Shown here: positions 4,351-41,525 of the stretch, one piece after another
Position numbering within the stretch: position 1 is the first letter of the stretch
Layout: the number at the start of each line of letters is the position of its first letter
Assembly: GCA_036971475.1 (NCBI GenBank)
Contig: JBAIZL010000010.1
Location: 6,478,631 to 6,542,630, forward strand
From: Prosapia bicincta
Lineage: Eukaryota > Arthropoda > Insecta > Hemiptera > Cercopidae
Reading direction: 5' to 3'
Length of the DNA stretch: 64,000 nt
The notes under the pieces: model-generated
Told to the model about the DNA's origin: nothing
Databases searched by the model: none
The model's input: only the letters and a program-made list of their open reading frames with translations
Translations under genes and position numbers: made by a program

Positions 4351-4740
4351 AATTTCCTTAGCTATTTGAAGACTTCCGTTAACTTATTTCTTCATCTATA
4401 TCATCAGTACTCTAAATTTAGAGTTTGTACATTGTTAGTGAGAATACAACAAAACTAAATAAGACAAAAGCAAGTTACAATTTATTACTGCGATATCTCC
4501 TTGTTCCTAGCAACTTAATATTATTTCAATGCAGAGAAATGAATTAATAAAATTTGAATAATCCTTCCGCAAGTCCAACTTACTATCCATGCAAGTTTTA
4601 TTGCTAAAGTTTGGTAGAGTTTGCTCATTTTAAAACTTTGCATTGACTTTCTGCAATACTTCCTCCTTTGTGGCTTTCATCACTTTATAAAGCCAGCTCT
4701 CATCGCCATGTTGGTTTCAATTTATAACTGAATAAAAAAA
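4351..4740 (+). repeat. Dispersed repeat family D, copy 1
   Basis: This segment recurs at 7233-7700 and 10692-11190 in the same orientation and at 50060-50560 and 51870-52170 inverted. The best conserved core includes CAAGTCCAACTTACTATCC, TTTTATTGCTAAAGTT and CCTCCTTTGTGGCTTT. Just after it, GGCTTT and AAAGCC can pair as a small hairpin enclosing a TATA-like stretch. There is no coding capacity. It may be a non-autonomous transposon or a solo terminal repeat; no terminal structure was found that would decide. Confidence 0.75.
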
Positions 4741-5608
4741 ATACCTATTTTTTAAATTTTAAAGCTATTATTATAAGCGTGAGACGAAAATAAATTTAAA
4801 CCACGATGTCTGATAAGTTTACACATAACGTAAGTGTGTGTTGAGCGTTTATTTCTTCATTGAGTTGTTTCTAAGTTACTTTTAAACCATAAAGCATTAT
4901 CAAATGCAATTTTTATCTCTATTCAGAAAAACCGTATTTTCGACGTCAAGCCGTATATTTAAATTAGGTAATAACGTATAGTATTCCAGTACTGTATATT
5001 TTTATCACACGTAGGTTATGTAGCTATCTGTATTGTACTCTTACAGTAACTTGAAATAACGTATGTGCAAAAATAAACGTCACTGGAACTGAATCAGTTG
5101 TAGTTGTCTTCTCTCAGATATAGTTATTTTTGATAATTTTAAAGGAGACATCAGAAAATTATGTTGCGCCGGAAACCTGCTTTTTCGTTCACAATGATTC
5201 TGGCAAGACGGCCCAACCAGCCATGCTGCCTTAGACAACATTGCTTTCCTTCAAGAAACTTTTGGCAGTCACCTCTTCTCCATTAGCACAAACTTTCTTT
5301 ACCCAGCCCTCTCCCTCAGTCTTACACTACTTGCCCGCCTTCGTCTAGGGAATGAAGAAAACAATTTTCCGTGCTGACCCACTAACCCCCATCGTGCATC
5401 TACAAGAAACCATAACCATACCTATAACGAGCATGAAACAACCCCTCTTCACCAAAATGACCCAAAACCTTCCAGAACCATACAATAGTTGGCTCAAGCT
5501 TGTATACATTACTTGTATATGTTTGTAAAACTATGTAAATGAAATACGTAAATAGGTATGTAATGTAACTAATGTTGTAGTTACATGATTTATGTCTTCC
5601 GAAAAACT
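4741..5608. other. Unassigned DNA, GC-richer around 5160-5470
   Basis: The stretch about 5160-5470 is richer in C and G and may be a decayed protein-coding transposon fragment. No frame stays open and no motif could be recognised. The rest is ordinary AT-rich DNA. Confidence 0.4.
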
Positions 5609-7222
5609 AGCAACACTATAAACACATACCACCATAGAACGTATCAACACTATAAAAACATAACACCATAAAACTTATCAACCCTATAAACACATAACAC
5701 CATAAAACTTATCAACACTATAAACACATACCACCATAGAACTTATCAACACTATAAAGACATACCACCATAGAACTTATCAACATTATAAAAACATAAC
5801 AATATAAAACGTATCAACACTATAAACACATACCACCATAGAACTTACCAACACTATAAAGACATACCACCATAGAACTGATCAACACTATAAACACATA
5901 CCTCCATAAAACTTATCAACACTATAAACAAATAACACCATAGAACTTATCAACACTATAAACGCATACCACCATAGAACTTATCAACGCTATAAATACA
6001 TACCACCATAGAACTTATCAATACTATAAACACATAACACCATAAAACTATCAACACTATAAACACACCATCATAGAACTTATCAACACTATAAACACAT
6101 AGCTACATAAAACGTATCAACACTATAAACACATACCACCATAGAACCTTTCAACACCATAAACGCATAACACCATGGAACTTATCGACACTATAAACAC
6201 ATAACACCATAAAAAGTACCAACACTATAAACACATAACACCATAAAAACTATCAACATTATAAACACACCATCATAGAACTTATCAACACTATAAACAT
6301 ATAACACCATACAAATTATCAACACTATAAACACGTAACAACATAAAACATATCAACACTAAAAACACATAACAATATAAAAAATAACACTATAAAAACA
6401 TAGGCCTACCACCATAGAACCTAACAACACTATAAACACATAACACCATAAAACTTATCAACACTATAAACACATACCACCATAGAACTTATCAACACTA
6501 TAAAGACATACCACCATAGAACTTATCAACATTATAAAAACATAACAATATAAAACGTATCAACACTATAAACACATACCACCATAGAACTTACCAACAC
6601 TATAAAGACATACCACCATAGAACTGATCAACACTATAAACACATACCTCCATAAAACTTATCAACACTATAAACAAATAACACCATAGAACTTATCAAC
6701 ACTATAAACGCATACCACCATAGAACTTATCAACGCTATAAATACATACCACCATAGAACTTATCAATACTATAAACACATAACACCATAAAACTATCAA
6801 CACTATAAACACACCATCATAGAACTTATCAACACTATAAACACATAGCACCATAAAACGTATCAACACTATAAACACATACCACCATAGAACCTTTCAA
6901 CACCATAAACGCATAACACCATGGAACTTATCGACACTATAAACACATAACACCATAAAAAGTACCAACACTATAAACACATAACACCATAAAAACTATC
7001 AACATTATAAACACACCATCATAGAACTTATCAACACTATAAACATATAACACCATACAAATTATCAACACTATAAACACGTAACAACATAAAACATATC
7101 AACACTAAAAACACATAACAATATAAAAAATAACACTATAAAACATAGGCCTACCACCATAGAACTTATCAACACTATAAACACACAACATCATAAAACT
7201 TATCAACACTATAGACACATAA
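5609..7222 (+). repeat. 34-bp minisatellite with a 745-bp higher-order duplication
   Basis: About 47 copies of a 34-bp unit of the form AACACTATAAACACATACCA plus CCATAGAACTTATC, with variants (ATAACACCATAAAACTTATC and shorter forms). Superimposed is a segmental duplication: the block ending in the rare TAGGCCTACC variant at 6401 recurs 745 bp downstream at 7146, with the same order of variant units in between. The array lies between two copies of dispersed family D. It has no coding potential. Confidence 0.95.
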
Positions 7223-7232
7223 TTTAACTGCC

Positions 7233-7700
7233 AAAACACAATTTATTTAATGTAATCATTCCAGGAAATACAATTCCTCTAGCTATTTGAAGACTTCCGT
7301 GAACTTATTTCTTCACCTATGCCATTAGTAGTCTAAATTTAGAGTTTGTACATTCTTAGTGAGATAGTAACAAAACTTAATAAGATAAAAGCAAGTTACA
7401 ATTTATTACTGCGATATCTCTTTACTCGTAGCAACTTAATATTATTTCACTGCAGAGAAATGAATTAATAAAATTTGAATAATCCTTCCGCAAGTCCAAC
7501 TTACTATCCATGCACGTTTTATTGCTAAAGTTAGGTAGAGTTTGCTCATTTTAAAACTTCGCATTGACTTTCTGGAAACACTACTTCCTCCTTTGTGGCT
7601 TTCGTCACTTTATAAAGCCAGCTCTCCTCGCCATGTTTAATTCAATTTATAATTAGTAATTAATCTTTTTTTTTTTAAAGCTATCATTATAAGCGTGTGA
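7233..7700 (+). repeat. Dispersed repeat family D, copy 2
   Basis: Closely matches copy 1, and shares a longer left end (AATTTATTTAATGTAATCAT) with copy 3 at 10692. It abuts the right end of the 34-bp minisatellite, so the minisatellite is bracketed by two direct copies of D. The array may have expanded inside, or between copies of, this element. Confidence 0.75.
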
Positions 7701-7759
7701 CAAATATAACTTTAAAGCATGATGTGTTATTAGTTTATACTTATAACGTGAGTGTGTGT

Positions 7760-8730
7760 AAATATCTTTTACTTCAAACTTTGAATCCACCCGTACAATG
7801 GGATATCCCTACCGTAATCTATCACTATTCCGCCTATATAGGAGAAAATAATTTAAATCAATACTTAGTAAAAATTGGAAATATATTTTCCTATTAAACT
7901 CATATTTCGTATTTGGTTAAAGTATTGTTAAGATGTCATTATATAAATAAACAAGTATGGTGTGTAGTAGATTACAGCAGGAGGCTTGTTCAACTGGTTT
8001 TAATAAAAAGTTATTTATTTCTTTTTAAGGAAACGAGATAATAACAGCTTATAATGTTTCAAATCAACGTTTTGTGTAATATTAAGTTTTTACAAAGGCA
8101 TTGAAAAAGTAAAGGTTAGGTTAGATTAGGTTAGGTTAGGTTATGGTTCGGTTATGGTTGGGTTAGGTTAGGTTAGGTTAGCTTAGGTTAGGTTAGGTTA
8201 GGTTTTTAGGGGCAATGTTTTGATGGCCCGAAACGAGTCTTCGTTAAGCTTTATCAATCTCTATGTTTTATGAGATTTTGGGGTCAAATGATAGAGGATA
8301 ATCACCCTACACAATGACGACTGAAGAAAATGCTACTTGAATCATTTAAAATAACTGTTTATTATTTCTTCTTTTTACACTTATGTTTTCAGTAATACCC
8401 GAACTCATAATTCATAATTTAGTGAGAGTAATTGTAGAACTAATTATTGGTTAGACATTTCTTTTGGATATTATTTTGTGTCCGATCAGATCTATTACTG
8501 AACCTAATGCAACGTTTTACGTGGCTTTTGTTCTTCAGAATATAGTTCTATTGTTTTAACTGTTCACGTACTTGAGTCCTTAGGCACAATCGTATTAAGG
8601 CGTGTTTCATTATAATTTGGGCGATCAGTTATTGCTTTGACAAACAATATTTTTAAGCCGTTGATTTTGTTCTATCAAACAACACACTATTAAGGTAATT
8701 AAAACGACTAATAATATATTAACAGCGCCT
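7760..8730 (+). mobile_element. TTAGG-carrying repeat element, copy 1
   Basis: The left module (7760-7842) matches 14591-14664 almost exactly. A short TTAGG-type array (8113-8203) follows, then a conserved right module (about 8203-8730) that matches 16500-17049. The right module opens with GGTTTTTAGGGGCA in both copies and ends at AACAGCGCCT. In this copy about 270 bp of unrelated DNA separates the left module from the array. There is no coding capacity. It is a dispersed element or segmental repeat with an internal telomere-like array; its class is unknown. Confidence 0.7.
8113..8203 (+). repeat. Short interstitial (TTAGG)n array
   Basis: About 18 pentamers of the insect telomere repeat TTAGG with a few variants (AGATT, GGTTC, GCTTA). 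Non-telomeric sequence lies on both sides, so it is interstitial and not a chromosome end. Confidence 0.9.
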
Positions 8731-8739
8731 TATTTATGA

Positions 8740-10537
8740 TATTGGTTACCAATTGAATTGATATTCTGTAGTGGATAGGAGAGCAATAGTTTATCGGAAT
8801 AGATGGGTATTGTATGGCGGATAAAAGAGCAATTGTTTACCGGATCGGAGAGTGTGTAGCGAATAGGAGAGCAGGTTTTCCTCAAATGGGTTGTTGTTCT
8901 GTAGCGGACAAGAGTTTTATCGGATCGGATGGTTATTGAGTGGTGAATAGGAGAGCAATTATCAGAGAATTGTTGTTTTTTGGATAGAGATAGATTGTTT
9001 AAATACACTAAAAGTGGTTTACATCAGAAAAAAGCTACAAAAGTACAACGAGATGCGTTTATACCCACCTAGGACCGAGTCTTAGGGTCTGGCCCTTAAA
9101 TAAGGCGAACCGGGAGTGGATAGAGGTAAGATTGCACTATTTGAACCGGACTAATCAAACGGGGTATTAAAGGTACGGAATATCTGGCCTTTCAGAAGGT
9201 TTTATTGGTTCCAAATAGTTCTGTAAACGCGGTCGAAACCGTAGTTTCTAGTTGGAGTTTGCCTGACGCTAGCCACCCGAACGGGAATCACGAGTTGAGA
9301 TTTAGATTCAATAAGCTTGATATTAGACATTTTCAAATGCGCATCTATCTAAGAGTAGAAAGGCTAGGTGCCTTAGCTACAAGCTCTTGTTATTATCACC
9401 ATCTTTCATTCTTCTAACCTTTTACATACGATTCTGTATTAGATAGGAGAGTTGTGAACGGATAGGAGAGCGATTGTGTACCTGATCTGTCATCAGATCT
9501 ATTAATTCTATTGCGGATTTGTTCCAGCTGTATAAACGAAGTCAACCCCAATAGCTCACATTTGTTAACAATAGACCAGTTTTAGTTTTAAAGTTTTTAT
9601 GAAATCGTACTCTATTGACCATTACTTTCATATAACGTTGTTCACAAATGTTTGGGTGTGTATTTGGAGGTGGTGTAATTGCTTACTAACGTACCAATAG
9701 CTTTAGACTTTATAAACATAATAAGAGCAACGTTCTGTACCTTAATCTGAGTAAAACTGTTAACAATGGCTTTATGCATTGTGTTGAAATTTCGCCTTAA
9801 GATTTATGCCCGACATATTTAACGCTCCCAGAACAAATGAAGGGAAATTAAGACTGAATGTGGGAACACCGCAGACGCCGTAACTATCAATTAGCTTAAC
9901 GTTTTCACCTCTGTAGTGACGTCACAATGTTACCTTAACAGAATAACCGACACAAATAGAAACAGGTGATACCGCTTCAACAACCCACTTCCTTAAGCTT
10001 GTGTGAATAATTTTTTATTTATCTTATTTCATAAAAACATTTATAGTTAAAGTGATCTTTAAATGCGTGTAACGTCTTTTGAAATCCGAGTGACTACATT
10101 TATGGCAATTTAGTTAATAATGACTTCGCTAGGTAGAGAGTAGTTTCATTTTGTCAGGGAGTTTTTATTTTAGGGCTTCATTTATATCAAACATTCTAGA
10201 TTAGTTTGACTTCTTAGAAATGCCTCTATGACATCGTCTGTTGCTGAAGCAATCATCTTTTAAATAACCTTACACATAATACTATTGATTTAAAACATAC
10301 ATACATTTAAAAGATCTTGGTGACAACTGGAAATTTTATGCCACACTATGTTTTACGAATTTCCAACTTCCAGAGCTCTAGAGACGAATTCCCGTTACGA
10401 ACAATACAAGACCTTATAGTTTTTATCTGGAGAACATGGTTAGGCAATATATACTCTTACAAATATTGTATTAATACGTCATAAAAGTGTTAGTAAAGAA
10501 ACGAAGTGACCTGAAAAACTGGGTAAATGATGAATCT
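8740..10537 (+). repeat. Left arm of large inverted repeat, outer part
   Basis: This segment is the reverse complement of 28976 to about 30700. It starts with a degenerate minisatellite of units like GGATAGGAGAGCAATTGTTT and ACCGGATCGG (8740-9000). About 1.5 kb of diverged but alignable sequence follows, including a TGACGTCA palindrome near 9917. The left-arm frame at 9205-9417 and the right-arm frame at 30106-30417 end in similar peptides (MRIYLRVERLGA and MRIYLRGERLGA), but the left copy lacks about 80 bp, so no gene is claimed. It abuts the end of the first TTAGG element. Confidence 0.8.
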
Positions 10538-10691
10538 CAGCAAAAGGACTAACTGTAGAGTCAGCTGTTCTGTGATTGCAGTTCACCACTCTACGTTCAC
10601 TGTAGGAAGCTTTGCAGATAGTTTTATGGTAAACTTCAAGTCCAATTTATTAACAGTATTCTTACACGTAGTAACGGATTTGTACACCGAA

Positions 10692-11190
10692 AAAATACAA
10701 TTTATTTAATGTAATCATTCCAGGAAATACAATTTTTTTAGCCATTTAAAGAGTTCAGTGGACTTATTTCTTCAGCTAAGTCATCAGTGGCCTATATTTA
10801 GAGAGCCTAAATTCTTAGTGAGAATACAACAAAACTAAATAAGATAAAAGTAAATCACAATTTATTACTACGATATTCTTTGCTCGTAGTAATATAATGT
10901 TATTTCACTTCAGAGACATGAATTAATAAAATTTGAATAATACATCCTCAAGTCCAACTTACTATCCATGCACGTTTTATTGCGAAAGTTAGGTTAGAGC
11001 TTGCTCATTTTAAAACTTTGAATTGACTTTCTGGAAAACCAAACCTCCTCCTTTGTGGCTTTCGTCACTTTATAAAGCCACCTTTCCTCGCTACGTTTAT
11101 TTCAATTCTGTGCACGAGCTCAATTAATAATTGAATGCAAAAAATTATTGTTGTTTTTTAAATTTTATTTTAAAGCTATCATTAAATGTG
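10692..11190 (+). repeat. Dispersed repeat family D, copy 3
   Basis: Matches copies 1 and 2, including the left end shared with copy 2 and the GTCCAACTTACTATCCATGC core. It lies in the part of the left arm that has no counterpart in the right arm. Confidence 0.7.
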
Positions 11191-12474
11191 ATTAAAACTT
11201 GATGTATGATTATTTTTACAGGTATAAGGGAAACAGTATCATTTTAATAAATTTTGTGATAAAGGATGATTTCCAAAAATTGTAATTTAAAAGTTACAAG
11301 CATACAAGTAATTAAACTTGACCGAATCTACTGAACTGAAATAGGATAAAACTGCAAGCTACTTCATTCACCAATATTTATTTAATTTTTTCTAAGAAAA
11401 AACTGTGCTGATTGAGTAAACAATAATCCGTGGACGGTCGTGTTTAAAATGAGAAACCAATTAACGAATAACACCATTAAATAATTATTGTTTTAAATAC
11501 TATACTTGAATCTAAGACTCCAAAAACGATAATAAACCAATTGTTTATTAATTAACACAGTGTAAAAAAATTTAGATGGGACACCAAAATAAAATAAGCT
11601 GATGAAAAATAGGTAGAACGAGTAAAATAAAATGTTATATCAGAACACCGATTATTTTTTAAACAATTTGTTGAACATTTTCAGTTAAATAATATATTAT
11701 TTCTAAAACAGCTTCGAATTCATAAATATGCTTTAACTTCTACAGAAGTTTTAATAATTTTTACTTTTATATTAATGAAATATTTCATTTAAAAGTTATT
11801 TAAATATAACCTAACGTAACCTATCTTTACCTAAACTGTCAAACATAACCTAAACTGATACGTAATTGTATGAATTCTTTCTATTAGAGTTAGATACTTC
11901 TTTAGATTTAACACCTTTCAAATATAGGCGACGGGTTTAATTTGATGTCTAGAAATAAAATTATTAAAAATAAAAACCGTATACACATTGTAATAACCTT
12001 TGCGCTTCTGGTAATATCGCTGGGTGTGTAGCGGACTTATTAATAAGAAATGTTAGCAAAGATCTCTGAATAACGGCGCATTACGATCCTCGTGAGTGTA
12101 TTGAAGTGTTTAGGGAGAGAAAGGGATTTTATTTTGGGAGAAACGTTCTTGTTTTATGGTTTCAAGAAGACGTTTTTTCCCATTCCTTGCGATAAATGTA
12201 AATAAATCCCCTGTGATGGCAACACAGACAACCATTAATAATCAGAGTATTATTAATTCCTTAATTGCGCAATAAATTGCGTGTAACACAATTTCTCAAG
12301 TCAGGAAGACAGATTGTAATATATTGTGTGGAGACAATTTTAAAGGTTAGGTCAATATTGACCCACACATTTAATTAAACAAATAATTCCTAATATTCAG
12401 TGCTCTACGCTCTACTTCCTATAGCTCCTTACCCTAAAATAATATAAAAGGAAGGAATATAAACACATACAAAA
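11191..12474. other. Unassigned AT-rich DNA within the left arm
   Basis: No gene or clear repeat was recognised. A few degenerate CCTAA-like motifs (about 11810-11860) recall the complement of TTAGG but form no array. Confidence 0.5.
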
Positions 12475-12860
12475 TAAATTTAATTCCTACTTAGGTGAAA
12501 GAAACATATATTTGATTAATTAATTACACTTATTATAAATAAATTATAACATAACCTATGAGTTAAAACTGCTGTTATATCACATAACCTATAAATTAAA
12601 ATCAGCAGTTTTATGAAAATAAATGTTATCACTAACACGTCGGACACATGTTAAGCCAAATGGGACAAAATAATTATATTTCATATCTTTTCCCTTTTGT
12701 CTAAGGTTTTTCTTCCAAAGAAAAGAAAAACTAATTAATTGAATTTAATGATTGAAGTAATATTTGACAAAACTGATTAATAGCAATTGTCAAGTTTAAA
12801 CAAATGTATCTGAACTTGAGTGAGTGAATAAAAAGTATTTCATTCAAGATTGACATTTTG
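12475..12860 (-). repeat. Dispersed repeat family E, copy 1
   Basis: About 400 bp, shared with 17180-17425 (+), 23020-23400 (-) and 41150-41525 (+). Conserved parts are AAGCCAAATGGGACAAAATA, a paired AAAATCAGCAG / CTGCTGATTTT-like segment, and AAGTTTAAACAAATGTAT near the distal end. The distal half (12660-12860) is also present, inverted, at 28800-28970 in the right arm. It has no coding capacity and is probably a non-autonomous transposon. Confidence 0.7.
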
Positions 12861-12954
12861 AACAAGATACACCTATAGGGATAGTAATGGAGGGAATTTA
12901 ATTAAATGAAGATTCAGACACATGAAAGCAAGATAAAACCTTTACCCAATCTTG

Positions 12955-13955
12955 ATAATAATTCTCCCTAACTCTCGTACTCGCCGCCTTACGGAGGTAC
13001 ATCGTGTTCCTCAGAATAACTTAAACTCATAAGGAATAAGATAGAAACTAATTCTCCCTAACTCTCGTACTCGCCGCATTATGGAGGTACATCGTGTTCC
13101 TCAGAATAACTTAAACTCATAAGGAATAAGATAGAAACTAGTTCTCCCTAACTCTCGTACTCGCCCCATTATGGAGGTACATCGTGTTCCTCAGAATAAC
13201 TTAAACTCATAAGGAATAAGATAGAAACTAATTCTCCCTAACTCTCGTACTCGCCGCATTATGGAGGTACATCGTGTTCCTCAGAATAACTTAAACTCAT
13301 GCGGAATAAGATAGAAACTAATTCTCCCTAACTCTTGTACTCGCCCCATTATGGAGGTACATCGTGTTCCTCAGAATAACTTAAACTCATAAGGAATAAG
13401 ATAGAAACTAATTCTCCCTAACTCTTGTACTCGCCGCATTATGGAGGTACATCGTGTTCCTCAGAATAACTTAAACTCATAAGGAATAAGATAGAAACTA
13501 GTTCTCCCTAACTCTCGTACTCGCCGCATTATGGAGGTACATCGTGTTCCTCAGAATAACTTAAACTCATAAGGAATAAGATAGAAACTAATTCTCCCTA
13601 ACTCTTGTACTCGCCCCATTATGGAGGTACATCGTGTTCCTCAGAATAACTTAAACTCATAAGGAATAAGATAGAAACTAATTCTCCCTAACTCTCGTAC
13701 TCGCCGCATTATGGAGGTACATCGTGTTCCTCAGAATAACTTAAACTCATGCGGAATAAGATAGAAACTAATTCTCCCTAACTCTTGTACTCGCCCCATT
13801 ATGGAGGTACATCGTGTTCCTCAGAATAACTTAAACTCATAAGGAATAAGATAGAAACTAATTCTCCCTAACTCTTGTACTCGCCCCATTATGGAGGTAC
13901 ATCGTGTTCCTCAGAATAACCTAAACTCATAAGGAATACGATAGAAACAAAATAT
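12955..13955 (+). repeat. 90-bp satellite array, left arm
   Basis: Eleven near-identical 90-bp units, each containing ATTCTCCCTAACTCTCGTAC, GGAGGTACATCGTGTTCCTC and TTAAACTCATAAGGAATAAG. Variant positions (CGCCGCATT or CGCCCCATT; CTCGTAC or CTTGTAC; AAGGAAT or GCGGAAT) recur in a patterned order, suggesting multi-unit duplication. The same satellite is present inverted at 27123-28790. Confidence 0.95.
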
Positions 13956-13961
13956 TCCTTC

Positions 13962-14590
13962 TTTGGGATATTATTTTCATAAATTCCGTCTTCTTCCTAA
14001 TTACCAACCCATACATAACAATAAGTCAAATGTGATGTAGGCTAGTATTAGTTATAAATATTACAGAATCACTACCTGAGTGGCTAGAGGCGCTATCACG
14101 AAATAATACTGAGTACGCGTTTGTCTAACAGACCACTGCAGGAACATTAAATATTATAATATGTGAACGAATGTCGCGACATCTAGAGGCAATGAAAGGT
14201 GTATATATGAATAATTAGATACTGTCGTCGCAAAGAAAGGGGAAACTAAAAGTTGAAATTAGGAACGAAACAGTCGAACTTGTAAACGTTTAGAAGTTGT
14301 AACTTGAACTGCGATATCTCTATCTCAGTAGAATAAAACCGCTACGTAATGGTTTGATAAAAGTAATTAATTTAAAAACAAAAACATTGTTTTGTAGATT
14401 TTAAAACGAACCCAAAATGAGTTAGGTTTCTAATTTCTCCGCAAGTCTAGCGCTCAATAATTCAAGTCTCAAGAAGCATGCAGCAGCAGATATGACATTG
14501 ATAAATGTTCGGGCTAAACCCTTTCATAAGGATATGACATTGATAAGAAATATCTTTTCTACTCTATCGACAGGAATTGCCTCTGAAGGG
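13962..14590. other. Unassigned DNA between satellite and TTAGG element
   Basis: No gene was seen. A stretch near 14075-14110 reads GAGTGGCTAGAGGCGC, loosely like a tRNA A box, but no matching B box follows. No open frame is convincing. Confidence 0.45.
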
Positions 14591-17049
14591 AAATATCTTT
14601 TATTTCAAACTTTGAATCCACCCGTACAATGGGATATCCCTACCGTAATCTATCCCTATTCCGGGGTTAGGTTAGGTTAGGTTAGGTTAGGTTAGGCTAG
14701 GCTAGGTTAGGTTAGGTTAGGTTAAGTTAGGTGAGGTGAGGTGAGGTGAGGTGAGGTTAGGTTAGGTTAGGTTAGATTAGGTTAGGTTAGGTTAGGTTAG
14801 GTTAGGTTAAGTTAGGTTAGGTCAGATTAGGTTAGGTTAGGTTAGGTTAGGCTAGGCTAGGGTAGGTTAGGGTAGATTAGGTTAGGTTAGGTTAGGTTAG
14901 GTTAGGTTCGGTTAGGTTAGGTTAGGGTTGGGTAGGTTAGGTTAGGTTAGGTTAGGTTAGGTTAGGTTAGATTAGGTTAGGTTAGGTTAGGTTAGGTGAG
15001 GTGAGGTGAGGTTAGGTGAGGTGAGCTTAGGTTAGGTTAGGTTAGGTTAGGTTAGGTGAGGTTATTTTAGGTTAGGTTAGGTTAGGTTAAGTTAAGTTAA
15101 GTTAAGTTAGGTGAGGTAAGGTGAGGTGAGGTGAGGTGAGGTGAGGTGAGGTGAGGTGAGGTGAGGTGAGGTGAGGTGAGGTTATGTTAGGTTAGGTTAG
15201 GTTAGGTTAGGTTAGGTTAGGTTAGGTTAGGTTGGGTTGGGTTGGGTTAGGTTAGGTTAGGTTAGGTTAGGCTAGGCTAGGCTAGGCAAGGCTAGGGTAG
15301 GTTAGGTTAGGTTAGGTTAGGTTAGGTTAGGTTAGGTTAGGTTAGGTCAGGTCAGGTCTGGTCAGGTCAGGTCAGGTCAGGTCAGGTCAGGGTAGGGTAG
15401 GGTAGGTTAGGTTATGTTAGGTTAGGTTAGGTTAGGTTAGGCTAGGCCAGGGTAGGTTAGGTTAGGTTAGGTTGGGTTAGGTTAAGTTAGGTTAGGTTAG
15501 GTTAGGTTAGGTTAGGTTAGGTTAGGTTAGGTTAGGTTAGGTTAGGTTATTGTTGGGTAGGTTAGGTTAGGTTAGGTTAGGTTAGGTTATGTTAGGTTAG
15601 GTTAGGTGAGGTGAGGTGAGGTGAGGTGAGGTGAGGTTTGGTTAGGTTAGGTTAGGTTAGGTTAGGTTAGGTTAGGTTAGGTTAGGTTAGGTTAGGTTAG
15701 GTTAGGTGAGGTGAGGTGAGGTGAGGTGAGGTGAGGTGAGGTGAGGTGAGGTGAGGTGAGGTGAGGTGAGGTGAGGTGAGGTGAGGTGAGGTGAGGTGAG
15801 GTGAGGTGAGGTGAGGTGAGGTGAGGTGAGGTGAGGTGAGGTGAGGTGAGGTGAGGTGAGTTGAGGTGAGGTGAGGTGAGGTGAGGTGAGGTGAGTTGGG
15901 ATGAGGTGAGTTGGGGTGGGGTGAGGTGAGGTGAGGTGAGGTGAGGTGAGGTTAGTTTAGGTTAGGTTAGGTTAGGTTAGGTTAGGTTAGGTGAGGTGAG
16001 GTGAGGTGAGGTGAGGTGAGGTGAGGTGAGGTGAGGTGAGGTGAGGTGAGGTGAGGTGAGGTGAGGTGAGGTGAGGTGAGGTGAGGTGAGGTGAGGTGAG
16101 GTGAGGTGAGGTGAGGTGAGGTGAGGTGAGGTGAGGTGAGGTGAGGTGAGGTGAGGTGAGGTGAGGTGAGGTGAGGTGAGGTGAGGTGAGGTGAGGTGAG
16201 GTGAGGTGAGGTGAGGTGAGGTGAGGTGAGGTCAGGTCAGGTCAGGTCAGGTCAGGTCAGGTCAGGTCAGGTCAGGTCAGGTCAGGTCAGGTCAGGTCAG
16301 GTCAGGTCAGGTCAGGTCAGGTCAGGTCAGGTCAGGTCAGGTCAGGTCAGGTCAGGTCAGGTCAGGTCAGGTCAGGTCAGGTCAGGTCAGGTCAGGTCAG
16401 GTCAGGTCAGGTCAGGTCAGGTCAGGTCAGGTCAGGTCAGGTCAGGTCAGGTCAGGTCAGGTCAGGTCAGGTCAGGTCAGGTCAGGTCATGGTTTGGTTA
16501 TGTTTGGGTTTGGTTAGGTTTTTAGGGGCAGGGTTTTGATGGCCCGAAACGATTGTCCATTAAGCTTTATCAATCTCTACGTTTTATGAGATTTCGGGGT
16601 CAAATGATTGAGGATAATCTTAGACCCTACACAATGACGACTTGAAGAAAATGCTACTTGAATCATTTAAAGTAACTGTTTATTATTTTTTTTTACACCT
16701 ATGTTTTTAGTAATACCCGAACTCATAATTCATAATTTAGTGAGACTAATTGTAGAACCAATTATTGGTTACACATTTCTTTTGGATATTATTTTGTGTC
16801 CGATCAGATCCATTACTGAACCTAATGCAACTTTTTACGTGGCTTTTGTTCTTAAGAATATAGATCTATTGTTTTAACTGTTCATGTACTTGAGTCCTCA
16901 AGGCTCAATCGTATTAAGGCGTGTTTCATTATAATTTGGGCGATCAGTTATTGCTGTGACAAACAATATTTTTAAGCCGTTGATTTTGTTCTATCAAACA
17001 ACACACTATTAAGGTAATTAAAACGACTAATAGTCTATTAACAGCGCCT
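14591..17049 (+). mobile_element. TTAGG-carrying repeat element, copy 2
   Basis: Same modular order as copy 1: left module 14591-14664, telomere-like array 14664-16490, right module about 16500-17049 beginning with GGTTTTTAGGGGCA and ending AACAGCGCCT. Here the array joins the left module directly and is about twenty times longer than in copy 1. Homology to a third, array-less copy (17500-17950) continues past 17049 to about 17165, so the true element is longer than the part shared with copy 1. No open frame encodes a recognisable protein. Confidence 0.7.
14664..16490 (+). repeat. Long interstitial telomere-like array, TTAGG with TGAGG and TCAGG blocks
   Basis: About 365 pentamers. The first kilobase is mainly TTAGG with scattered TGAGG, TCAGG, CTAGG and GTAGG variants. 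A pure TGAGG run of about 48 units follows (15991-16230), then an abrupt switch to a pure TCAGG run of about 52 units (16231-16488). TTAGG is the ancestral insect telomere repeat. Unique DNA on both sides makes this interstitial. The long open frame across the TCAGG block is an artefact of the 5-bp period. Confidence 0.95.
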
Positions 17050-17179
17050 CATTTGACGCGGTTTCTATTTGCAATTAATTTATCCAAAAACAAATTTCTA
17101 GTTTTAAATGTTTTGGACATAACTATGTTTATCCTTTTTTTTACAAGTTATCTGTATTATCTCATTAATTTTAGTTTTA

Positions 17180-17425
17180 TATAGGATAAAATGGACAACG
17201 GGAGCAAGGTATGCAATATAGTTACTTCGTCCCACTTGGTTTAAAATAAGAGGTAACATATGATTTCATAAAACAGCTGATTTTATGTTAGAGGGTATGC
17301 GGTAGAACAGCTGTTTAAACGCATAGGTTGTTACTTTATTTATAATAAATGTATTTATTTAATAAAAAAACACTAAACAAAACCTTTTTTGATGAACTAA
17401 GTAGGAATTGTCTTTAAAAGGTTTT
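17180..17425 (+). repeat. Dispersed repeat family E, copy 2
   Basis: Shares GCAATATAGTTACTTCGTCC, the ACAGCTGATTT segment and GATGAACTAAGTAGGAATTG with the other E copies (12475, 23020, 41150). It is embedded between copy 2 and the third copy of the TTAGG element's right module. Confidence 0.65.
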
Positions 17426-17499
17426 GTTTATTATTTCCCTTTGATTTTTTAAATTTGTGTTTCTAGCAAAACCATATTTCTTCGGATTTTTTAAAATTT

Positions 17500-17950
17500 A
17501 GTAGACCAATTGTTCAATTAAATATCAGTTACAAAACTTCTTTTCATTATTATTTTGAGTACCCGATCGGACCCATTACCGAACACAAAGCAGCCTTTTG
17601 CTTTGATTTCATTCCACAGAATATATACCTATTGCCTTGACTGTTCATATACTTGAAACCTTAAGGAACAATCGATATATAAGGAGTGGCTCATGTATTA
17701 CTTTAGTTTGGGCAATCAGTTATTGCTTTGGTAAGAAATATTTTTAAACCTTTGTTATTATTCTTTCAAACAACCGCCTTATTAAGGTAAATTAAACTAC
17801 CTATTTTCTCTTATGCTCATTTCATTTGACGAGATTCTTTTTAATTTTTCAATTAATTTATGCATACGCACATTTCTAGTTTCAAATGATTTTTGACGAT
17901 AACTCTGTTTACCTTAGTTTTACAAATTATGAGTATTATCTCATAATGTT
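17500..17950 (+). repeat. Diverged third copy of the TTAGG element's right module
   Basis: Aligns with about 16735-17165: a CCCGATCGGACCCATTACCG-like segment, TTGGGCAATCAGTTATTGCT, AACAACCGCCTTATTAAGGT and an AT-rich tail ending in ATTATCTCAT. It is more diverged than copies 1 and 2 are from each other and has no pentamer array, so the array is not an obligate part of the family. Confidence 0.65.
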
Positions 17951-18099
17951 AAATCTGTATAAACTTGCATTGCGAGATGTTATTGTATTAATGACTAAAG
18001 TTTAAATAAAACGTAATTGTAATTCATTATAAAAACTTTCCTAAATACTTTGAATTTAAAACTTTGGAGACAAACAGTTTTATTAAATGTCAACATTAA

Positions 18100-18257
18100 T
18101 TGTAATTAGAGAGCGATGGTTGCAGATTCTTTGGATTTATTTTGTTCGGCGCTGAAAGATAAGCCAAAAATAAAACAACAACTTCTAATTAGAAAGGATC
18201 ACTCACCCCTTCCTACCTTCCCCTCTCCTGGCTTCGGTCGCTCTCTTTAATTACAGA
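18100..18257. mobile_element. Possible small MITE with ~18-bp terminal inverted repeats
   Basis: The left end reads TGTAATTAGAGAGCGATGG. The right end, read inward, is TGTAATTAAAGAGAGCGACC. The match is good with one indel. About 120 bp separates the ends. No coding capacity and no unambiguous target-site duplication were seen. Confidence 0.35.
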
Positions 18258-19140
18258 CAATGCTACACTCAAAGTGCAACAATACTTATGACTTGTTGTT
18301 ACATGAATGTGAGGAACGTTGTCCGAATATACAATTTGTGTTGTCAGCACTAATTAGGTACTTTGAGAGTTGTGCTCGCCTTTAGAGTGTGTTGGAAAAA
18401 TAACAAGTAAGCTATAATGTAACAATAACTTTCCTACAACTTTCTATAGGACTATGACAAGGTTTGGGTAAGATGGCAACAAATCCTTCTAAGTTACACC
18501 TGCTTCATGTTTTGCTTTTCTGACACTAGAATGCGTATGTGTAGCATTCGTATTTACGTATCTCCCAGACAACCTCCGCTAACTGTGGTACAATGAAGGC
18601 ATTTCTGCACTAACTGTATGAAATGTTACACAATGTGTGGCACCAGTATGAAACTATTCATGTTCGAACATATTCATCAGCTGCAAATCTATTCAGAACT
18701 TTATCAATGGCGTTCTTGTGTATAATCCAATCTAACTAAAACCCTGCTTTGGGATAAAGGAAAGTTTACTGTAGGAAAACAATGAATGCAAAAATAAACA
18801 ATATTAAATCGGAAAGGATAAGATTATTATTCGCAATGACGTATTTAACCTTATTAAGGCCCGTATTCTGTAATCTGAAATCCCTCCAGACTTGCGTTGG
18901 ATTTCTTTGTCCCGTGGCTCAATGTGGAATCTCTTTACGAAATGCAAAATTTGAATAATTCCAGTTTATGTGCAGTTCTACCTTTAAACGTGGATAAAGC
19001 ATTATTCGGATCAGATTATCTGGCTTCATTAAGGCTGGGCATGATTTAAGGTATTGTGATCAGTCTGGGTGTCGAAAACCTTTGAGGCCTACTCTAAGTA
19101 TTTCATTGAATATTTTTATTATTATTATTATAATTAGTAT
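18258..19140. other. Unassigned DNA
   Basis: No open frames or recognised repeats. A short TTA-type microsatellite at about 19118-19135 immediately precedes the LINE relic. Confidence 0.5.
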
Positions 19141-19144
19141 TTCA

Positions 19145-20325
19145 ACGTGATGGCTACAGGATGCGGGTAGATATAACTAACTCCAGAGGCAAACGCCTGG
19201 CATCAAGACTGGGACTCGTCCTTAACACAGGTAACACAACTACCTTCCTTCGATCAGGATATAGATAAAGCATTATCGACATTACTTTGGTCTCAGAGTC
19301 ACTAGTCTCTAGAATTCAGGACTGGGTAGTGATGAAGGAATATACGGCAAACTATCGTAAGTACATCCTAATCAGTATCAACCCTGAGAAACCAAAGAGA
19401 CAGTTGAGAATGCTAAGAAGAAGCAGGTGGAATGTTCCAAGAATGGATCAGGAGAGGTTCTCGGAGGTCCTGTAAGGTTCTCATTTGCATGCCACGGAAA
19501 TGAGACGAAAAACGCAAAGTCACAGGTACGCCGAAGCTGTAGTAGTGACATCAATGAAACTCATTCAAAGATCCTGCATGATTGCTATCCCCCTAAAACG
19601 GTTCCCTAGAGGAAATAGAAATCCTGAATATTGGTGGTCTGAGGAGATTGTCATATTACGGAGGAAGGTCCTGAGAACGAGACGCCTAGCCTAACGGCCA
19701 AGGCCAAGGGGACAGGGTGTAGCATGGTCTGCGCTTGGCTCTGGAAAAACCCGATAGTTCTGATATCCAAAAGACACCTTACTCCTAGCCCTGAAATGCT
19801 TTTAAAAGAGGAAAATATAGCGGTTAAAAATGCCATTAGGTACTTAGGTATCATGATTGATAGGAGGTTGAGTTTTCAGAATGATGTTTAATGCACAGCT
19901 GAGTAAGCGGTCAGAGACAGTAGGCTTCTAGCTAACGTTAGGGACCCTACTGAGAGCAGACGCCGTCTTATGATATCCGTGACGCAACCTACAATGCTGT
20001 ACGGAATAAACATTTGGGCAGACGCACTAAAAACCGAGAGGTATAGAAAGCGGATGACCTCGTAGCGGAGAACAGGGACACGAAGAGTGGCGTGTTACCG
20101 AACGGTCTCTGAATCGGCGGCTCTAGTGGTGGCAGGACTAATTCCTATTGCCCTGCTGGCTCTAGAGAAAAAAACCATTGCAGAGCGACGAAACAATATA
20201 ACGATAGGGATAACAAAATGGAATAGAGAAGGGCGACGATTTCCGAGTGGCAAGAAAGAGGATCTGCGAACCTAAAGGAAGATGGACAGCCAGACTATTC
20301 AAAAACCTATCCAGTTATCTACCAT
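19145..20325 (+). pseudogene. R1-clade-like LINE relic (ORF2 with internal deletion)
   Basis: Three blocks typical of R1-type non-LTR retrotransposons appear in order. The first (about 19178-19470) resembles the end of the apurinic-type endonuclease: SRGKRLASRLGLVLNTG, then a TAA stop, then SIIDITLVSE and RIQDW. The second (about 19600-19690) has the linker motif PEYWWSEEI followed by an arginine-rich stretch. The third (about 19780-20320) is the region after the reverse transcriptase: IRYLGIMIDRRLSF, TMLYGINIWADALK, YRTVSESAALVVAG and IPIALLALEKKTI. The RT palm with its catalytic motifs is missing between blocks two and three. Stops and frameshifts are scattered. It is 5' truncated and dead. 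Confidence 0.8.
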
Positions 20326-20569
20326 AGGGCCAAACTTGTTTCAAGATCTGATTGTAGATATTTATTTTATTCCAATAGTGCCTGCGATATTTGATATTTA
20401 GTTCCTCCTTTTTTTCATGATGCGGTGTTCATCTTAGTTTAGCATCTAGGTCATACCTAGATATTTAGACGCCATACCTAGATATTTAGCATTATTTTCA
20501 TAAGGGATTATAATTCCGTTAACATCCAATATTCTAGGAACATGGAGTTTGTTTCTTGTCCACTCTACT

Positions 20570-20570
<1 letters not shown>
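20326..20570. other. Possible 3' tail of LINE relic and unassigned DNA
   Basis: Sequence after the last recognisable LINE codons is AT-rich, with a local duplication of CATACCTAGATATTTAG near 20450-20480. It may be the 3' untranslated region of the LINE; no poly-A tail is evident. Confidence 0.35.

Positions 20571-20642
<72 letters not shown>
20571..20642. repeat. (TA)n microsatellite
   Basis: About 36 TA dinucleotides with one interruption, directly abutting the left end of the DNA transposon. Confidence 0.95.
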
Positions 20643-20644
<2 letters not shown>

Positions 20645-22079
20645 AGGGTTCTATGCAATAACAAACCAAGTCCAAAAATGTGAAATGAGAGTTAAGTTTA
20701 AAAATCCTAAGTAGCTTGCTTATAAAAGTATATATTTCATATTTGCTATATATGTTTAAAACATTCTAACTTGAATAAGGACCTAGGCTAAGTTTGATTT
20801 ATATTGAAATTTATATCTTTAATTATTAACAAAAAAGTGTTTTATGGAGTTGGTTTATTATTGCACTGAACTGCTGGACTTGGTTTGTTGTTCCGACTTT
20901 TCTGTGCATTAGTACTTACAATTTTTATCTCATGTAGATGGTTTATTGAAAGAAAGCACAACAATTTTAATTAATGTTAAAGTACATATTTTATTATATT
21001 AACTGAATCTTAAAATGTTGAATATACAATTGTTTAAAGGGTTTTTAAAATTGTTTACAAGTAAAAAAAATCATCGTCATCTTCATCAAAGTCGTCACCA
21101 TCAGCTGATTGCAAACCTCGACTTCTAGTACCAATCTCTTGGGGTAGGTTTCTGAAGTACTGGTGGTGAATGGATGGGATGAATGGCAAAAGGTCAGCCA
21201 TATCTGATTTTTTAGCCATATCAGGACTTTGTTGAACTTCAAGAAGGGATTTTAAGTTTATTCCTTTTCTAATTTTGGCATTTTCCCTTGGTTTGGCTGG
21301 CATCCGCTGTTTTATATCCAACACTCTGAAGGGTTCTTTCTCATCAAACGAATGTTTGAAGTAAATAGTAAAAGGTTCTACTTTTACAAATCTCCTCCAC
21401 CTAAAGTTTTGCCAGCTAACCGGTTCATCGTCAATTCCAACTTTTCTGTTTTCTACATTCTATTCCAGTTCTTTGGTACTTAGAAACTCTTCCCTCTTCA
21501 TACAATGAACCTCGAAAGAAGGATTCTTACGTTTCGCAGATTTTATTACATCTACCCAAAATCTATCCAAAATCTATTACATCTATCCAAAATCAGTATC
21601 GTTAGGAAGATACGAATGGCCCGAAACCATGTACATTAAATCAATACAACTAACTTTAATGTTCAGGTAGGTTACATGCAAAATAGCACTTAATTATACT
21701 TTTAAGGAATACGTGGTTGGAAAGGAATGAATATAACAAAATAACAATTGATTGGTGACTGAAGTTAAACTGATGATTATATTATGTTCTTACACGTACC
21801 TTCATCACTGTCTGGTGTCCATTCATCATCCATGCTGAGCAAAACTAAACAAGAAACTGTGAGAGAATCTAGGACTAATGGAGTTGGTTCTTTATTGCTC
21901 TGAAGTTTCGTTGCTTATCAGTCAGTGCATGACCAAACTAGCGCATTCCGGCTGCGAGTTGTGGAACTTTGGACTTGGTTTGATATTGCACTAAATAAAC
22001 GATGATTTTTCACATACCCTACTATCCCTAACTCAAAAATTACAAAAAATGGACTTGGTTCTTTATTGCTCTGAACCCT

Positions 22080-22149: not shown

Positions 22150-22439
22150 TGGAATATCACAGGTGTAACGTAGGCAGAGTATTGGACCCAAAGCACTACC
22201 TTAGGGTACTCCTGCTTTAATTTCCTTAAATTCAGAATATTCCACTTCCTGTGTGATCCTGAAGGTTCTACCTGTTATAAAACCAACATTTACCTATTGC
22301 AGTTGGTAAAACCTAGCATCTTCAAACTTTAATTGTAAAAGACCGAAGAATCATCATAAATACATAATAACCTCTCATTATATTTACGTAATATCTACGT
22401 TACACAAACAATTTCTTAGTATGGAGGAACAGTGTAGAG
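22147..22439. other. Unassigned DNA
   Basis: No gene or repeat was recognised between the microsatellite and the next dispersed repeat. Confidence 0.5.
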
Positions 22440-22660
22440 TAAAACTGTAACAATTCTAGAGCTCTAGGCATTGTATTGAAATGTCGCTCTGAGATTTATA
22501 CCCGACATATATAACGCTTCCAGAACAAATGAAGGGAAATTAAGACTGAACGTGGCAACACCGCAGACGCCGTAACTCTCAATTAGCTTAACGCTTACAC
22601 CTCTGTAGTGACGTCACAATGTTGCCTTAATAGAATATCTGATACAAATAGAAATGAATG
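22440..22660 (+). repeat. Dispersed repeat family F
   Basis: Matches 9750-9965 (+) in the left arm and 29575-29795 (-) in the right arm. Conserved pieces are TTATACCCGACATATATAAC, CAGAACAAATGAAGGGAAAT, CACCGCAGACGCCGTAACT and GTAGTGACGTCACAATGTT, which contains the palindrome TGACGTCA. It occurs here outside the arms, so it is a separate mobile family and not only part of the inverted duplication. Confidence 0.75.
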
Positions 22661-23019
22661 CGGTGAATAATTTAAATATATTTCAAGTCATTGAGAAAAT
22701 CAATAAATATAATTATTATAATTGACAACGAAACCCCGAAGCAAAACCCAACCACTTTGCGCAGTGATTTTAATTATATTTCCGTTCTGTTTCAATTGGC
22801 ATTCCCGTTTGGAAAATAATTTTCAACCACACAAAACATTCTACAATCGAAGATATATTTCCAGGCACAGATTAAAATGTAGTTTTTACGGAAGATAAAT
22901 ACGTATATGGGCCGTGCTTCACAGCGTAATGTCGTCTTAAACTGCCCGATGGTAAGTTATTTGTAATATTTTAAACGAAAAAAAATATTAAACAAGTAAT
23001 ATAAACAAAAACATGTGTA
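22661..23019. other. Unassigned AT-rich DNA
   Basis: No open frame or known motif seen. Confidence 0.5.
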
Positions 23020-23400
23020 AAGTCAATCCCTACTTGGGCCAAGAAAGAAAATATTCACTTTACGTACTTTTTATTAAATAATTACAATTAATATAAATAA
23101 AGTAACATAACCTATGCCTTAAAAATCTGTTCTACCATATAACTTTTATCGTAAAATCAGCAGCTTTTAAAAATCATGTTATTTAATCATATTTTAAGCC
23201 AAATGGGACAAAATAACTATATGCCTACCTTGCCCCTTTTATGAAACGTCCCCCCCCTATAAAATCTATATTAACCAATTAATATATTTAATAATGAATT
23301 AATACTTGAAAATACTCTATTTACATCAAGTGTCATTCACTAGAAGTTTAAACAAGTGTATATGATTTTGTTTGAGGGATATATAAATAGGCCGGGGCAC
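23020..23400 (-). repeat. Dispersed repeat family E, copy 3
   Basis: Same orientation as copy 1. It shares CTACTTGGGCC-type start, AACATAACCTATG, AAAATCAGCAG, AAGCCAAATGGGACAAAATA and the distal AAGTTTAAACAAGTGTAT. A short C-run near 23250 interrupts it. Confidence 0.7.
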
Positions 23401-27122: not shown

Positions 27123-28790
27123 AACTTAATTATTCTGAGTAACACGATGTACCTCCATAATGCGGCGAGTACGAGAGTTAGGGAGAATTAGTTTCTATCT
27201 TATTCCGTATGAGTTTAAGTTATTCTGAGGAACACGATCTATCTCCATAATGCGGCGAGTACGAGAGTTAGGGAGAATTAGTTTCTATCTTATTCCGTAT
27301 GAGTTTAAGTTATTCTGAGGAACACGATCTATCTCCATAATGCGGCGAGTACGAGAGTTAGGGAGAATTAGTTTCTATCTTATTCCGTATGAGTTTAAGT
27401 TATTCTGAGGAACACGATCTATCTCCATAATGCGGCGAGTACGAGAGTTAGGGAGAAATAGTTTCTATCTTATTCCGTATGAGTTTAAGTTATTCTGAGG
27501 AACACGATGTACCTCCATAATGCGGTGAGTACGAGAGTTAGGGAGAATTAGTTTCTATCTTATTCCGTATGAGTTTAAGTTATTCTGAGGAACACGATCT
27601 ATCTCCATAATGCGGCGAGTACGAGAGTTAGGGAGAAATAGTTTCTATCTTATTCCGTATGAGTTTAAGTTATTCTGAGGAACACGATCTATCTCCATAA
27701 TGCGGCGAGTACGAGAGTTAGGGAGAAATAGTTTCTATCTTATTCCGTATGAGTTTAAGTTATTCTGAGGAACACGATCTATCTCCATAATGCGGCGAGT
27801 ACGAGAGTTAGGGAGAAATAGTTTCTATCTTATTCCGTATGAGTTTAAGTTATTCTGAGGAACACGATCTATCTCCATAATGCGGCGAGTACGAGAGTTA
27901 GGGAGAAATAGTTTCTATCTTATTCCGTATGAGTTTAAGTTATTCTGAGGAACACGATCTATCTCCATAATGCGGCGAGTACGAGAGTTAGGGAGAAATA
28001 GTTTCTATCTTATTCCGTATGAGTTTAAGTTATTCTGAGGAACACGATCTATCTCCATAATGCGGCGAGTACGAGAGTTAGGGAGAATTAGTTTCTATCT
28101 TATTCCGTATGAGTTTAAGTTATTCTGAGGAACACGATCTATCTCCATAATGCGGCGAGTACGAGAGTTAGGGAGAAATAGTTTCTATCTTATTCCGTAT
28201 GAGTTTAAGTTATTCTGAGGAACACGATGTACCTCCATAATGCGGTGAGTACGAGAGTTAGGGAGAATTAGTTTCTATCTTATTCCGTATGAGTTTAAGT
28301 TATTCTGAGGAACACGATCTATCTCCATAATGCGGCGAGTACGAGAGTTAGGGAGAAATAGTTTCTATCTTATTCCGTATGAGTTTAAGTTATTCTGAGG
28401 AACACGATCTATCTCCATAATGCGGCGAGTACGAGAGTTAGGGAGAAATAGTTTCTATCTTATTCCGTATGAGTTTAAGTTATTCTGAGGAACACGATCT
28501 ATCTCCATAATGCGGCGAGTACGAGAGTTAGGGAGAAATAGTTTCTATCTTATTCCTTATGAGTTTAAGTTATTCTGAGGAACACGATCTATCTCCATAA
28601 TGCGGTGAGTACGAGAGTTAGGGAGAATTAGTTTCTATCTTAGTCCTTATGAGTTTAAGTTATTCTGAGGAACACGATGTACCTCCATAATGCGGTGAGT
28701 ACGAGAGTTAGGGAGAATTAGGTTCTATCTTATTCCGTATGAGTTTAAGTTATTCTAAGGAACACGATGTACCTCCATAATGCGGAGGGT
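27123..28790 (-). repeat. 90-bp satellite array, right arm (inverted)
   Basis: About 18.5 copies of the same 90-bp satellite as at 12955-13955, in the opposite orientation. Most units differ from the left array in the same way: ATCTATCTCC here where the left has the complement of GGAGGTACAT. A minority of units (for example at 27505 and 28225) keep the left-type sequence. The arrays have therefore partly homogenised on their own. Confidence 0.95.
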
Positions 28791-28794
28791 TCGA

Positions 28795-28970
28795 GAGCTT
28801 TGAATGAAATACTTTTTATTCATTCACTCAAGTTCAAATACATTTGTTTAAACTTTACTATTGCTAATAATCAGTTTTGTCAAATAACTCTTCAATAATT
28901 AAATTCAATTAATTAGTTTTTGTTTTATGCGGAAGAAAAACCTTACAAAAAAAGGGAAAAGATATGAAAT
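28795..28970 (+). repeat. Truncated family E copy at the inner edge of the right arm
   Basis: The reverse complement of about 12660-12860 and therefore the distal half of a family E element. It stops abruptly at about 28970 and joins sequence matching 10537. The left arm has the whole E element plus 2.1 kb more at this place, so the simplest reading is a deletion in the right arm with one end inside E. Confidence 0.7.
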
Positions 28971-28975
28971 ATCTT

Positions 28976-41149: not shown

Positions 41150-41525
41150 CGTTAGTAAAATACTTGTTTATCATCTACTAAAATACTTTTTTTTTAAAGT
41201 TCTAATTCTAGATGACACTTGATGTTTGATACAGTTTAAAAAAATATTAATTCAGTAATAAATAACTTAATTAATTATAGTTTTGTATAGGAAAAAAACT
41301 TTTACAAAAGGGCAAAGTTTGCAATATAGTTATTTCGTCTCATTTGATTTGAAATAAATGATAACATAGGCTTTTATAAAAGAGCTGATTTAGTGGTATA
41401 AGTTGTGTGGTGGAACAGCTGTTTTAATGCACAGGTTATGTTACGCCGTTTACATTATTTGTAGTAATTTAATGAAAAGTAACAAGAATACATTACTTTT
41501 TGTTGACCTAATTAGAAATTGAGTT
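41150..41525 (+). repeat. Dispersed repeat family E, copy 4
   Basis: Opposite orientation to copies 1 and 3, same as copy 2. It shares GCAATATAGTTATTTCGTCT, CATTTGATTTGAAATAAATG, GAGCTGATTT, GGTGGAACAGCTGTTTTAAT and GACCTAATTAGAAATTG. Similarity extends upstream through an AT-rich half to about 41150. Confidence 0.7.

What the first reader, a model, noticed from the sequence alone, without database searches (positions are those of the whole stretch)
7760..17049. An element family that carries a telomere-type (TTAGG) array inside it
Two direct copies share the same left module, then a TTAGG array, then the same right module beginning GGTTTTTAGGGGCA. The array is about 90 bp in one and about 1.8 kb in the other, while a third, diverged copy of the right module (17500-17950) has none. 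This is not a random interstitial telomere scar: the array sits at the same place in a repeated unit. It could be a transposon that picked up and amplified telomere repeats, or a subtelomere-derived unit that has spread.
Basis: partly seen in the sequence, partly recalled or inferred. Interest (0 to 1): 0.75.

Follow-up and report, generated by a model that had tools for sequence, protein, structure and literature searches.

The report
Duplicated repeat carrying telomere-like array
In a repeat-crowded stretch of what looks like an insect genome, a small DNA unit holding a telomere-like five-letter repeat exists in two nearby copies whose repeat runs have very different lengths; this is most likely an ordinary local duplication, though a mobile element could not be ruled out because the rest of the genome could not be searched.

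Summary
Partly confirmed. A 73-bp left module (7760-7832 / 14591-14663, 2 mismatches) and a ~530-bp right module (8205-8735 / 16521-17054, K2P 0.053) occur twice, same order and strand, with a GGTTA-type array that meets the right module at the same junction. Corrections: in copy 1 the left module does not touch the array (280 bp, 7833-8112, lie between); the third right module (17414-17959) lacks its first ~140 positions, so its missing array says nothing; only 132 of 370 units of the long array are TTAGG, with 122 TGAGG and 61 TCAGG, partly in long uniform blocks, which suggests slippage or unequal exchange, not telomerase. Another repeated block in the window (A-unit, M fragment, 90-bp array; inverted) also carries an array of different length, so the pattern is not telomere-specific. 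Best reading: local duplication of a unit holding an interstitial telomere-type tract, then array length change. A dispersed element with a hitchhiking array remains possible. The decisive test, a search of the window's own genome, was requested 16 times and never answered.

The parts
7760..7832 (+). left module, copy 1
   Evidence: 73 bp, 2 mismatches to 14591-14663; begins exactly where repeat X (7274-7759) ends
7833..8112 (.). 280-bp segment present only in copy 1, between left module and array
   Evidence: no other hit below E 4.9 in the array-masked window; best direct match at its edges is 5 bp, a chance-level value, and no inverted ends of 5 bp or more
8113..8204 (+). short GGTTA (TTAGG) array, copy 1
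   Evidence: TRF 18.0 copies, 86% matches
8205..8735 (+). right module, copy 1; homology stops at 8735 and the A-unit begins at 8738
14591..14663 (+). left module, copy 2, directly abutting the array
14664..16520 (+). long pentamer array, copy 2: GGTTA / GGTGA / GGTCA
   Evidence: TRF 370.8 copies; 132 GGTTA, 122 GGTGA, 61 GGTCA of 370 units; pure runs of 48 GGTGA then 52 GGTCA towards the right module
16521..17181 (+). right module, copy 2
   Evidence: nhmmer 16522-17181; 93% identity to copy 1 over 8205-8735
17414..17959 (+). third, diverged right module, lacking its first ~140 positions
   Evidence: nhmmer model 141-657; 72% identity
17164..17431 (.). M-family dispersed repeat between right modules 2 and 3
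   Evidence: 75% to 41270-41529 and to 23236-23001; four-copy alignment
8738..10537 (+). A-unit next to right module copy 1; inverted counterpart at about 31578-28977, further fragment at 22437-22654
   Evidence: K2P 0.058 over 9263-10537; 8738-9261 matches at only 72-83%
12959..13948 (+). 90-bp tandem array, 11 copies; inverted counterpart 27126-28797 with 18.6 copies beside the same M fragment

Best explanation
A short interstitial telomere-type tract lay directly upstream of the right module in an ancestral segment L...(GGTTA)n-R (the common array-R junction is shown; that L belonged to the same segment is inferred). That segment was duplicated locally, giving two direct copies whose left modules start 6.8 kb apart (inferred). 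After that the arrays changed length independently by replication slippage or unequal exchange, and point-mutant units (TGAGG, TCAGG) were amplified in uniform blocks (inferred from block structure). Other repeats adjoin or break up copy 1: the 280-bp segment between L and array, the A-unit at 8738, and repeat X ending at 7759; the order of these events is not known. No function in telomere maintenance is implied.
For: Same order and strand of L and R, found together only here within the window. K2P of L 0.028 (73 sites) and R 0.053 agree within error, as one duplicated segment would. The three R copies lie on one strand within 9.8 kb of 64 kb: 5.6% of simulated uniform placements, 1.4% after multiplying by 1/4 for strand. 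Internal comparison: A-unit, M fragment and a 90-bp array recur in the same order in inverted orientation, with 11 versus 18.6 array copies; the main part of the A-unit has K2P 0.058, close to R. At least 19.8 kb of 64 kb is tandem array (13 arrays that I listed). Pure blocks of 48 GGTGA and 52 GGTCA.
Against: Homology stops at the edges of L and R and no longer flank is shared, which also suits a mobile element. Copies 1 and 2 are not collinear between L and the array. The clustering P is modest and post hoc. The inverted block is not cleanly one duplication: 8738-9261 matches at 72-83%, the M fragment has K2P 0.093, two stretches (about 2.1 kb and 106 bp) are missing from the inverted copy, and a further A fragment lies at 22437-22654 (88-89%), so A may itself be a dispersed repeat. 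The shared irregular 22-mer in the two arrays (8143-8164, 16489-16510) is weak evidence for array homology: simulated independent arrays matched as well in 212, 154, 61 and 8 of 2000 trials at rising mutation rates (a looser first version gave 382 of 1410, 161 of 1498 and 7 of 1500).
Confidence: 0.55

Rival explanations
1. L-(GGTTA)n-R is a dispersed non-autonomous transposable element whose internal simple repeat hitchhikes and varies in length, like MITEs or Helitron-related elements with internal arrays.
For: Homology ends sharply at L and R; a third diverged R copy exists; elements that carry arrays are documented, including (GTCY)n in lepidopteran MITE-like elements (passages of PMC9659126).
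Against: No shared word over 5 bp at three edge pairings; L and R together only at this locus in the window. Terminal inverted repeats of the whole unit were not sought.
Confidence: 0.3
2. The right module is the decayed 5' end of a telomere-targeted R1-clade LINE (SART-type) that inserted after TT of a TTAGG array; the array is its target and gives the unit its telomere origin.
For: [quoted passage not shown] Frame-broken fragments resembling an R1-clade endonuclease and RT tail (recognised from memory) lie on the same strand between 19149 and 20197.
Against: Pfam found nothing in five such pieces (first protein, four proteins). R shows no coding similarity that I found, and about 1.2 kb without recognised similarity separates 17959 from the relic. 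A LINE insertion does not explain the shared L. No TTAGG array follows R on its other side in either copy.
Confidence: 0.06
3. Subtelomere-derived unit, or telomerase-mediated break repair followed by duplication.
For: TTAGG is the common insect telomere motif, and break-repair and subtelomeric origins of interstitial arrays are proposed in the literature (PMC9693754 passages).
Against: Most units of the long array are not TTAGG (238 of 370). No chromosome position is known for the window. This explains the seed tract, not its duplication.
Confidence: 0.06
4. Part of the long array (the uniform GGTGA and GGTCA blocks) is a sequencing or assembly artefact.
For: Strand-specific miscalling of telomere repeats by nanopore basecallers is documented for TTAGGG (PMC9414165 passages).
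Against: A whole-word search of that paper found TTAGG 0 times, and the miscalls it lists are other motifs; the duplication of L and R is independent of it. The sequencing method used here is unknown to me.
Confidence: 0.03

Closest known systems
Interstitial telomeric sequences (ITS) flanked by repetitive elements (short-ITS classes A-E; het-ITS)
   Same: Telomere-type array at an internal site, bordered by repeats, length change by slippage or unequal exchange proposed; an origin through transposable elements carrying telomeric repeats has already been proposed (PMC9693754, passages)
   Different: The classes rest on mammalian TTAGGG data; here the long array is a mixture with TGAGG and TCAGG, and the unit is repeated nearby
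MITE/DINE-Helitron elements with internal tandem arrays
   Same: Array at a fixed place in a repeated unit, copy number variable (PMC9659126, passages)
   Different: No TSD found at the edges tried; TIR and Helitron ends not sought; copies known only from one locus
SART/TRAS telomere-specific non-LTR retrotransposons
   Same: DNA joined to a TTAGG array at a constant junction (PMC7265360, passages)
   Different: No ORF identified in the module, no array on its other side, and a second shared module (L) beyond the array
(TCAGG)n telomeres of some beetles
   Same: GGTCA block is TCAGG in another register (PMC8233369, passages)
   Different: Here 61 of 370 units in an interstitial array, beside twice as many TGAGG units; more likely an expanded point mutant (inference)

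Membership tests
Interstitial telomeric sequence | Run of telomere-type repeats at a non-terminal site | tested here: met
   Arrays at 8113-8204 and 14664-16520 with other DNA on both sides; the host's own telomere motif not tested
Interstitial telomeric sequence | Array mostly of the telomere motif | tested here: inconclusive
   132 of 370 units TTAGG in the long array; the short array holds 13 exact GGTTA units in 92 bp
Transposable element with hitchhiking array | Defined ends with target-site duplication | tested here: inconclusive
   No exact word over 5 bp at three edge pairings; the true right end of R is unsure (copy 1 stops at the A-unit, copy 2 at the M repeat) and imperfect duplications were not searched
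Transposable element with hitchhiking array | Terminal inverted repeats (MITE) or Helitron ends | not tested
   Inverted ends were sought only for the 280-bp segment (none of 5 bp or more)
Transposable element with hitchhiking array | Dispersed copies in the genome | not tested
   Own-genome search did not complete (16 attempts); in the window L and R occur together only at this locus
SART/TRAS LINE | R1-clade ORF2 continuous with the telomeric junction | tested here: not met
   Three plus-strand frames of 17900-21100 show only broken pieces, longest listed ORF there 82 aa on +; Pfam none in five pieces
SART/TRAS LINE | Insertion at the T/A step of TTAGG | tested here: inconclusive
   Junction TT|TTTAGGGGCA is compatible but not diagnostic
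Local segmental duplication | Collinear paralogous segment with similar divergence along its length | tested here: inconclusive
   L 0.028 and R 0.053 K2P agree within error, but collinearity is broken by 280 bp and by array length
Telomere-associated Penelope-like element (defining feature recalled) | PLE coding region next to telomeric repeats | tested here: not met
   PLE relic (RVT_1, GIY-YIG) at 33982-35161, minus strand, over 16 kb from the array unit

The most novel reading that the evidence does not exclude
A non-autonomous insect element family carries a telomere-type array as a constitutive internal part and spreads it through the genome, seeding interstitial arrays that drift towards alternative motifs such as TCAGG, a motif used as a telomere in some beetles. 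Such a family could seed ectopic telomere-like tracts and be a reservoir for telomere-motif change.
Probability: 0.1. Interest if true: 0.65.

Novelty: new member of a known kind. Interest (0 to 1): 0.27.

Why it matters
If the unit proved to be a dispersed element, it would be a concrete vehicle for spreading telomere-type tracts, a mechanism that a review mentions as proposed for interstitial telomeric sequences (PMC9693754). As a local duplication it is an ordinary example of array turnover: two related arrays beside one shared junction, one of about 18 units and one of about 370, with point-mutant units expanded in blocks.

Tried and rejected
Rejected: two independent telomere scars (shared L, R and junction). 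Rejected as evidence: the array-free third right module, because it lacks the adjoining part. Weak: the shared irregular 22-mer. Rejected: link to the Penelope-like relic (over 16 kb away, minus strand). No Rfam match at gathering score and no ARAGORN tRNA (bacterial code) in the window, so a tRNA-derived SINE has no support from those two tools. Pattern scans of the viral collection for a right-module and a left-module word, and of the prokaryote collection for a right-module word, gave 0 hits; expected for insect DNA and no evidence about dispersal. The 280-bp segment as a simple insertion: no direct match beyond chance and no inverted ends of 5 bp or more. The chance table holds 106 of 2000 placements at the ceiling of 12, probably those inside the 90-bp array (27126-28797), because the offsets tried include three array periods; I did not remove them.

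Literature: eight searches, of which I saw listings and the beginnings of abstracts; and passages of PMC9659126, PMC9693754, PMC7998251, PMC7265360, PMC9414165 and PMC8233369. No paper was read whole. [quoted passage not shown] I make no claim that the unit is unpublished.

Full report
WHAT IS THERE. The window is 64 kb of AT-rich DNA (36% G+C) with no Rfam match at gathering score and no ARAGORN tRNA. The species is not known to me. At least 19.8 kb of the 64 kb is tandem array (sum of 13 arrays that I listed).

THE UNIT. Self-comparison with arrays masked gives 41 pairs of similar segments. Two belong to the finding: left module 7760-7832 ~ 14591-14663, and right module 8205-8735 ~ 16521-17054. 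L differs at 2 of 73 sites, R at 27 of 528 with 9 gap columns. Both arrays run GGTTA on the plus strand towards R and meet it at the same words, GGTTAGGTTTTTAGGGGCA. This is beyond chance (E 2e-28 and 0.0).

In copy 2 the left module touches the array. In copy 1 it does not: 280 bp (7833-8112) lie between, and a search of the array-masked window with them gave, besides the self-match, only E 4.9 and 8.6. The third right module (17414-17959) matches profile positions 141 onward only, so it cannot show that a right module lacks an array. The long array has 370 units in my parse: 132 GGTTA, 122 GGTGA, 61 GGTCA and 55 others. Of its left 123 units 70 are GGTTA; of its right 123, 55 are GGTGA, 52 GGTCA and 8 GGTTA; the last two long runs are 48 pure GGTGA and 52 pure GGTCA. 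This pattern fits expansion of mutant units by slippage or unequal exchange; a single telomerase template would hardly give three motifs in blocks (inference).

SURROUNDINGS. Left module copy 1 starts where another repeat, X (4354-4841 ~ 7274-7759, also 10692-11107), ends. Right module copy 1 stops at 8735, and the A-unit (8738-10537) begins at 8738. The A-unit, a fragment of the dispersed M repeat and a 90-bp array recur in the same order, inverted, at 31578-27126. There the array follows the same M fragment with 18.6 copies, against 11 in the direct block. So a tandem array of different length in a repeated block occurs a second time in this window, with a sequence that has nothing to do with telomeres. 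That is the best argument against a telomere-specific reading. It has limits: the inverted block lacks about 2.1 kb between A and M and about 106 bp between M and the array, its 8738-9261 part matches at only 72-83%, and a further A fragment lies at 22437-22654 (88-89%), so A may be a dispersed repeat in its own right.

AGE AND PLACEMENT. K2P is 0.028 for L (73 sites), 0.053 for R, 0.058 for the main part of A (9263-10537), 0.093 for the M fragment, and 0.094 and 0.127 for X pairs. L and R agree within error. R and the main part of A could be of one age, but the other parts of the inverted block look older, and equal divergence would not prove one event. The three R copies share a strand and 9.8 kb; uniform independent placement gives the span in 5.6% of simulations, 1.4% after a factor of 1/4 for strand. 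M copies lie at 12, 17, 23 and 41 kb in both orientations, as expected of a dispersed family.

ELEMENT TESTS. Three edge pairings gave no shared word longer than 5 bp, and the 280-bp segment has no inverted ends of 5 bp or more and a chance-level direct match. Inverted ends were not sought for the whole L-array-R unit, and the true right end of R is unsure. The shared irregular 22-mer in both arrays would show common ancestry of the arrays, but simulated independent arrays reached the same match in 212, 154, 61 and 8 of 2000 trials at rising mutation rates, so I give it little weight. Pattern scans of viral and prokaryote collections found 0 copies, which carries no weight for an insect repeat.

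COMPARISON. A review describes interstitial telomeric sequences flanked by repeats, changed by slippage and unequal exchange, and mentions transposable elements carrying telomeric repeats as one proposed origin (PMC9693754 passages). Elements with internal tandem arrays are documented (PMC9659126 passages). SART and TRAS insert into TTAGG arrays at constant steps (PMC7265360 passages). A SART-type junction is compatible here (TT|TTTAGGGGCA), and fragments that I recognise from memory as R1-clade LINE begin 2.6 kb downstream of the junction on the same strand, but Pfam did not confirm them in five pieces and nothing connects them to R.

VERDICT. A real repeated unit with a telomere-type array, misdescribed on its left side, most likely a local duplication in a repeat mosaic (0.55), less likely a dispersed element (0.30). 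The genome-wide test that separates the two could not be run.

Noticed in passing
33982-35537 (-): Relic of a Penelope-like element: RVT_1 in 34415-35161 and GIY-YIG in 33982-34317, broken over several frames.
   Followed up: partly
19149-20197 (+): Frame-broken fragments resembling an R1-clade LINE endonuclease and RT tail (recognised from memory; Pfam found nothing in five pieces).
   Followed up: partly
8738-13959 and 27126-31578: Inverted recurrence of A-unit, M fragment and 90-bp array (11 and 18.6 copies); the inverted block lacks about 2.1 kb between the A-unit and the M fragment. A further A fragment lies at 22437-22654.
   Followed up: partly
57341-63467: 6.1-kb array of a 60-bp unit; it leaves very long open frames on both strands (up to 1230 aa), probably not genes.
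   Followed up: no
43466-49643: 6.2-kb array of a 184/367-bp unit, 96% matches.
   Followed up: no
12436-12834, 17164-17431, 22979-23387, 41190-41531: M family: dispersed repeat, four copies in both orientations, about 69-75% alike.
   Followed up: partly
5611-7221, 53617-54300 and 55680-56023: Further minisatellites of 34, 28 and 37 bp.
   Followed up: no
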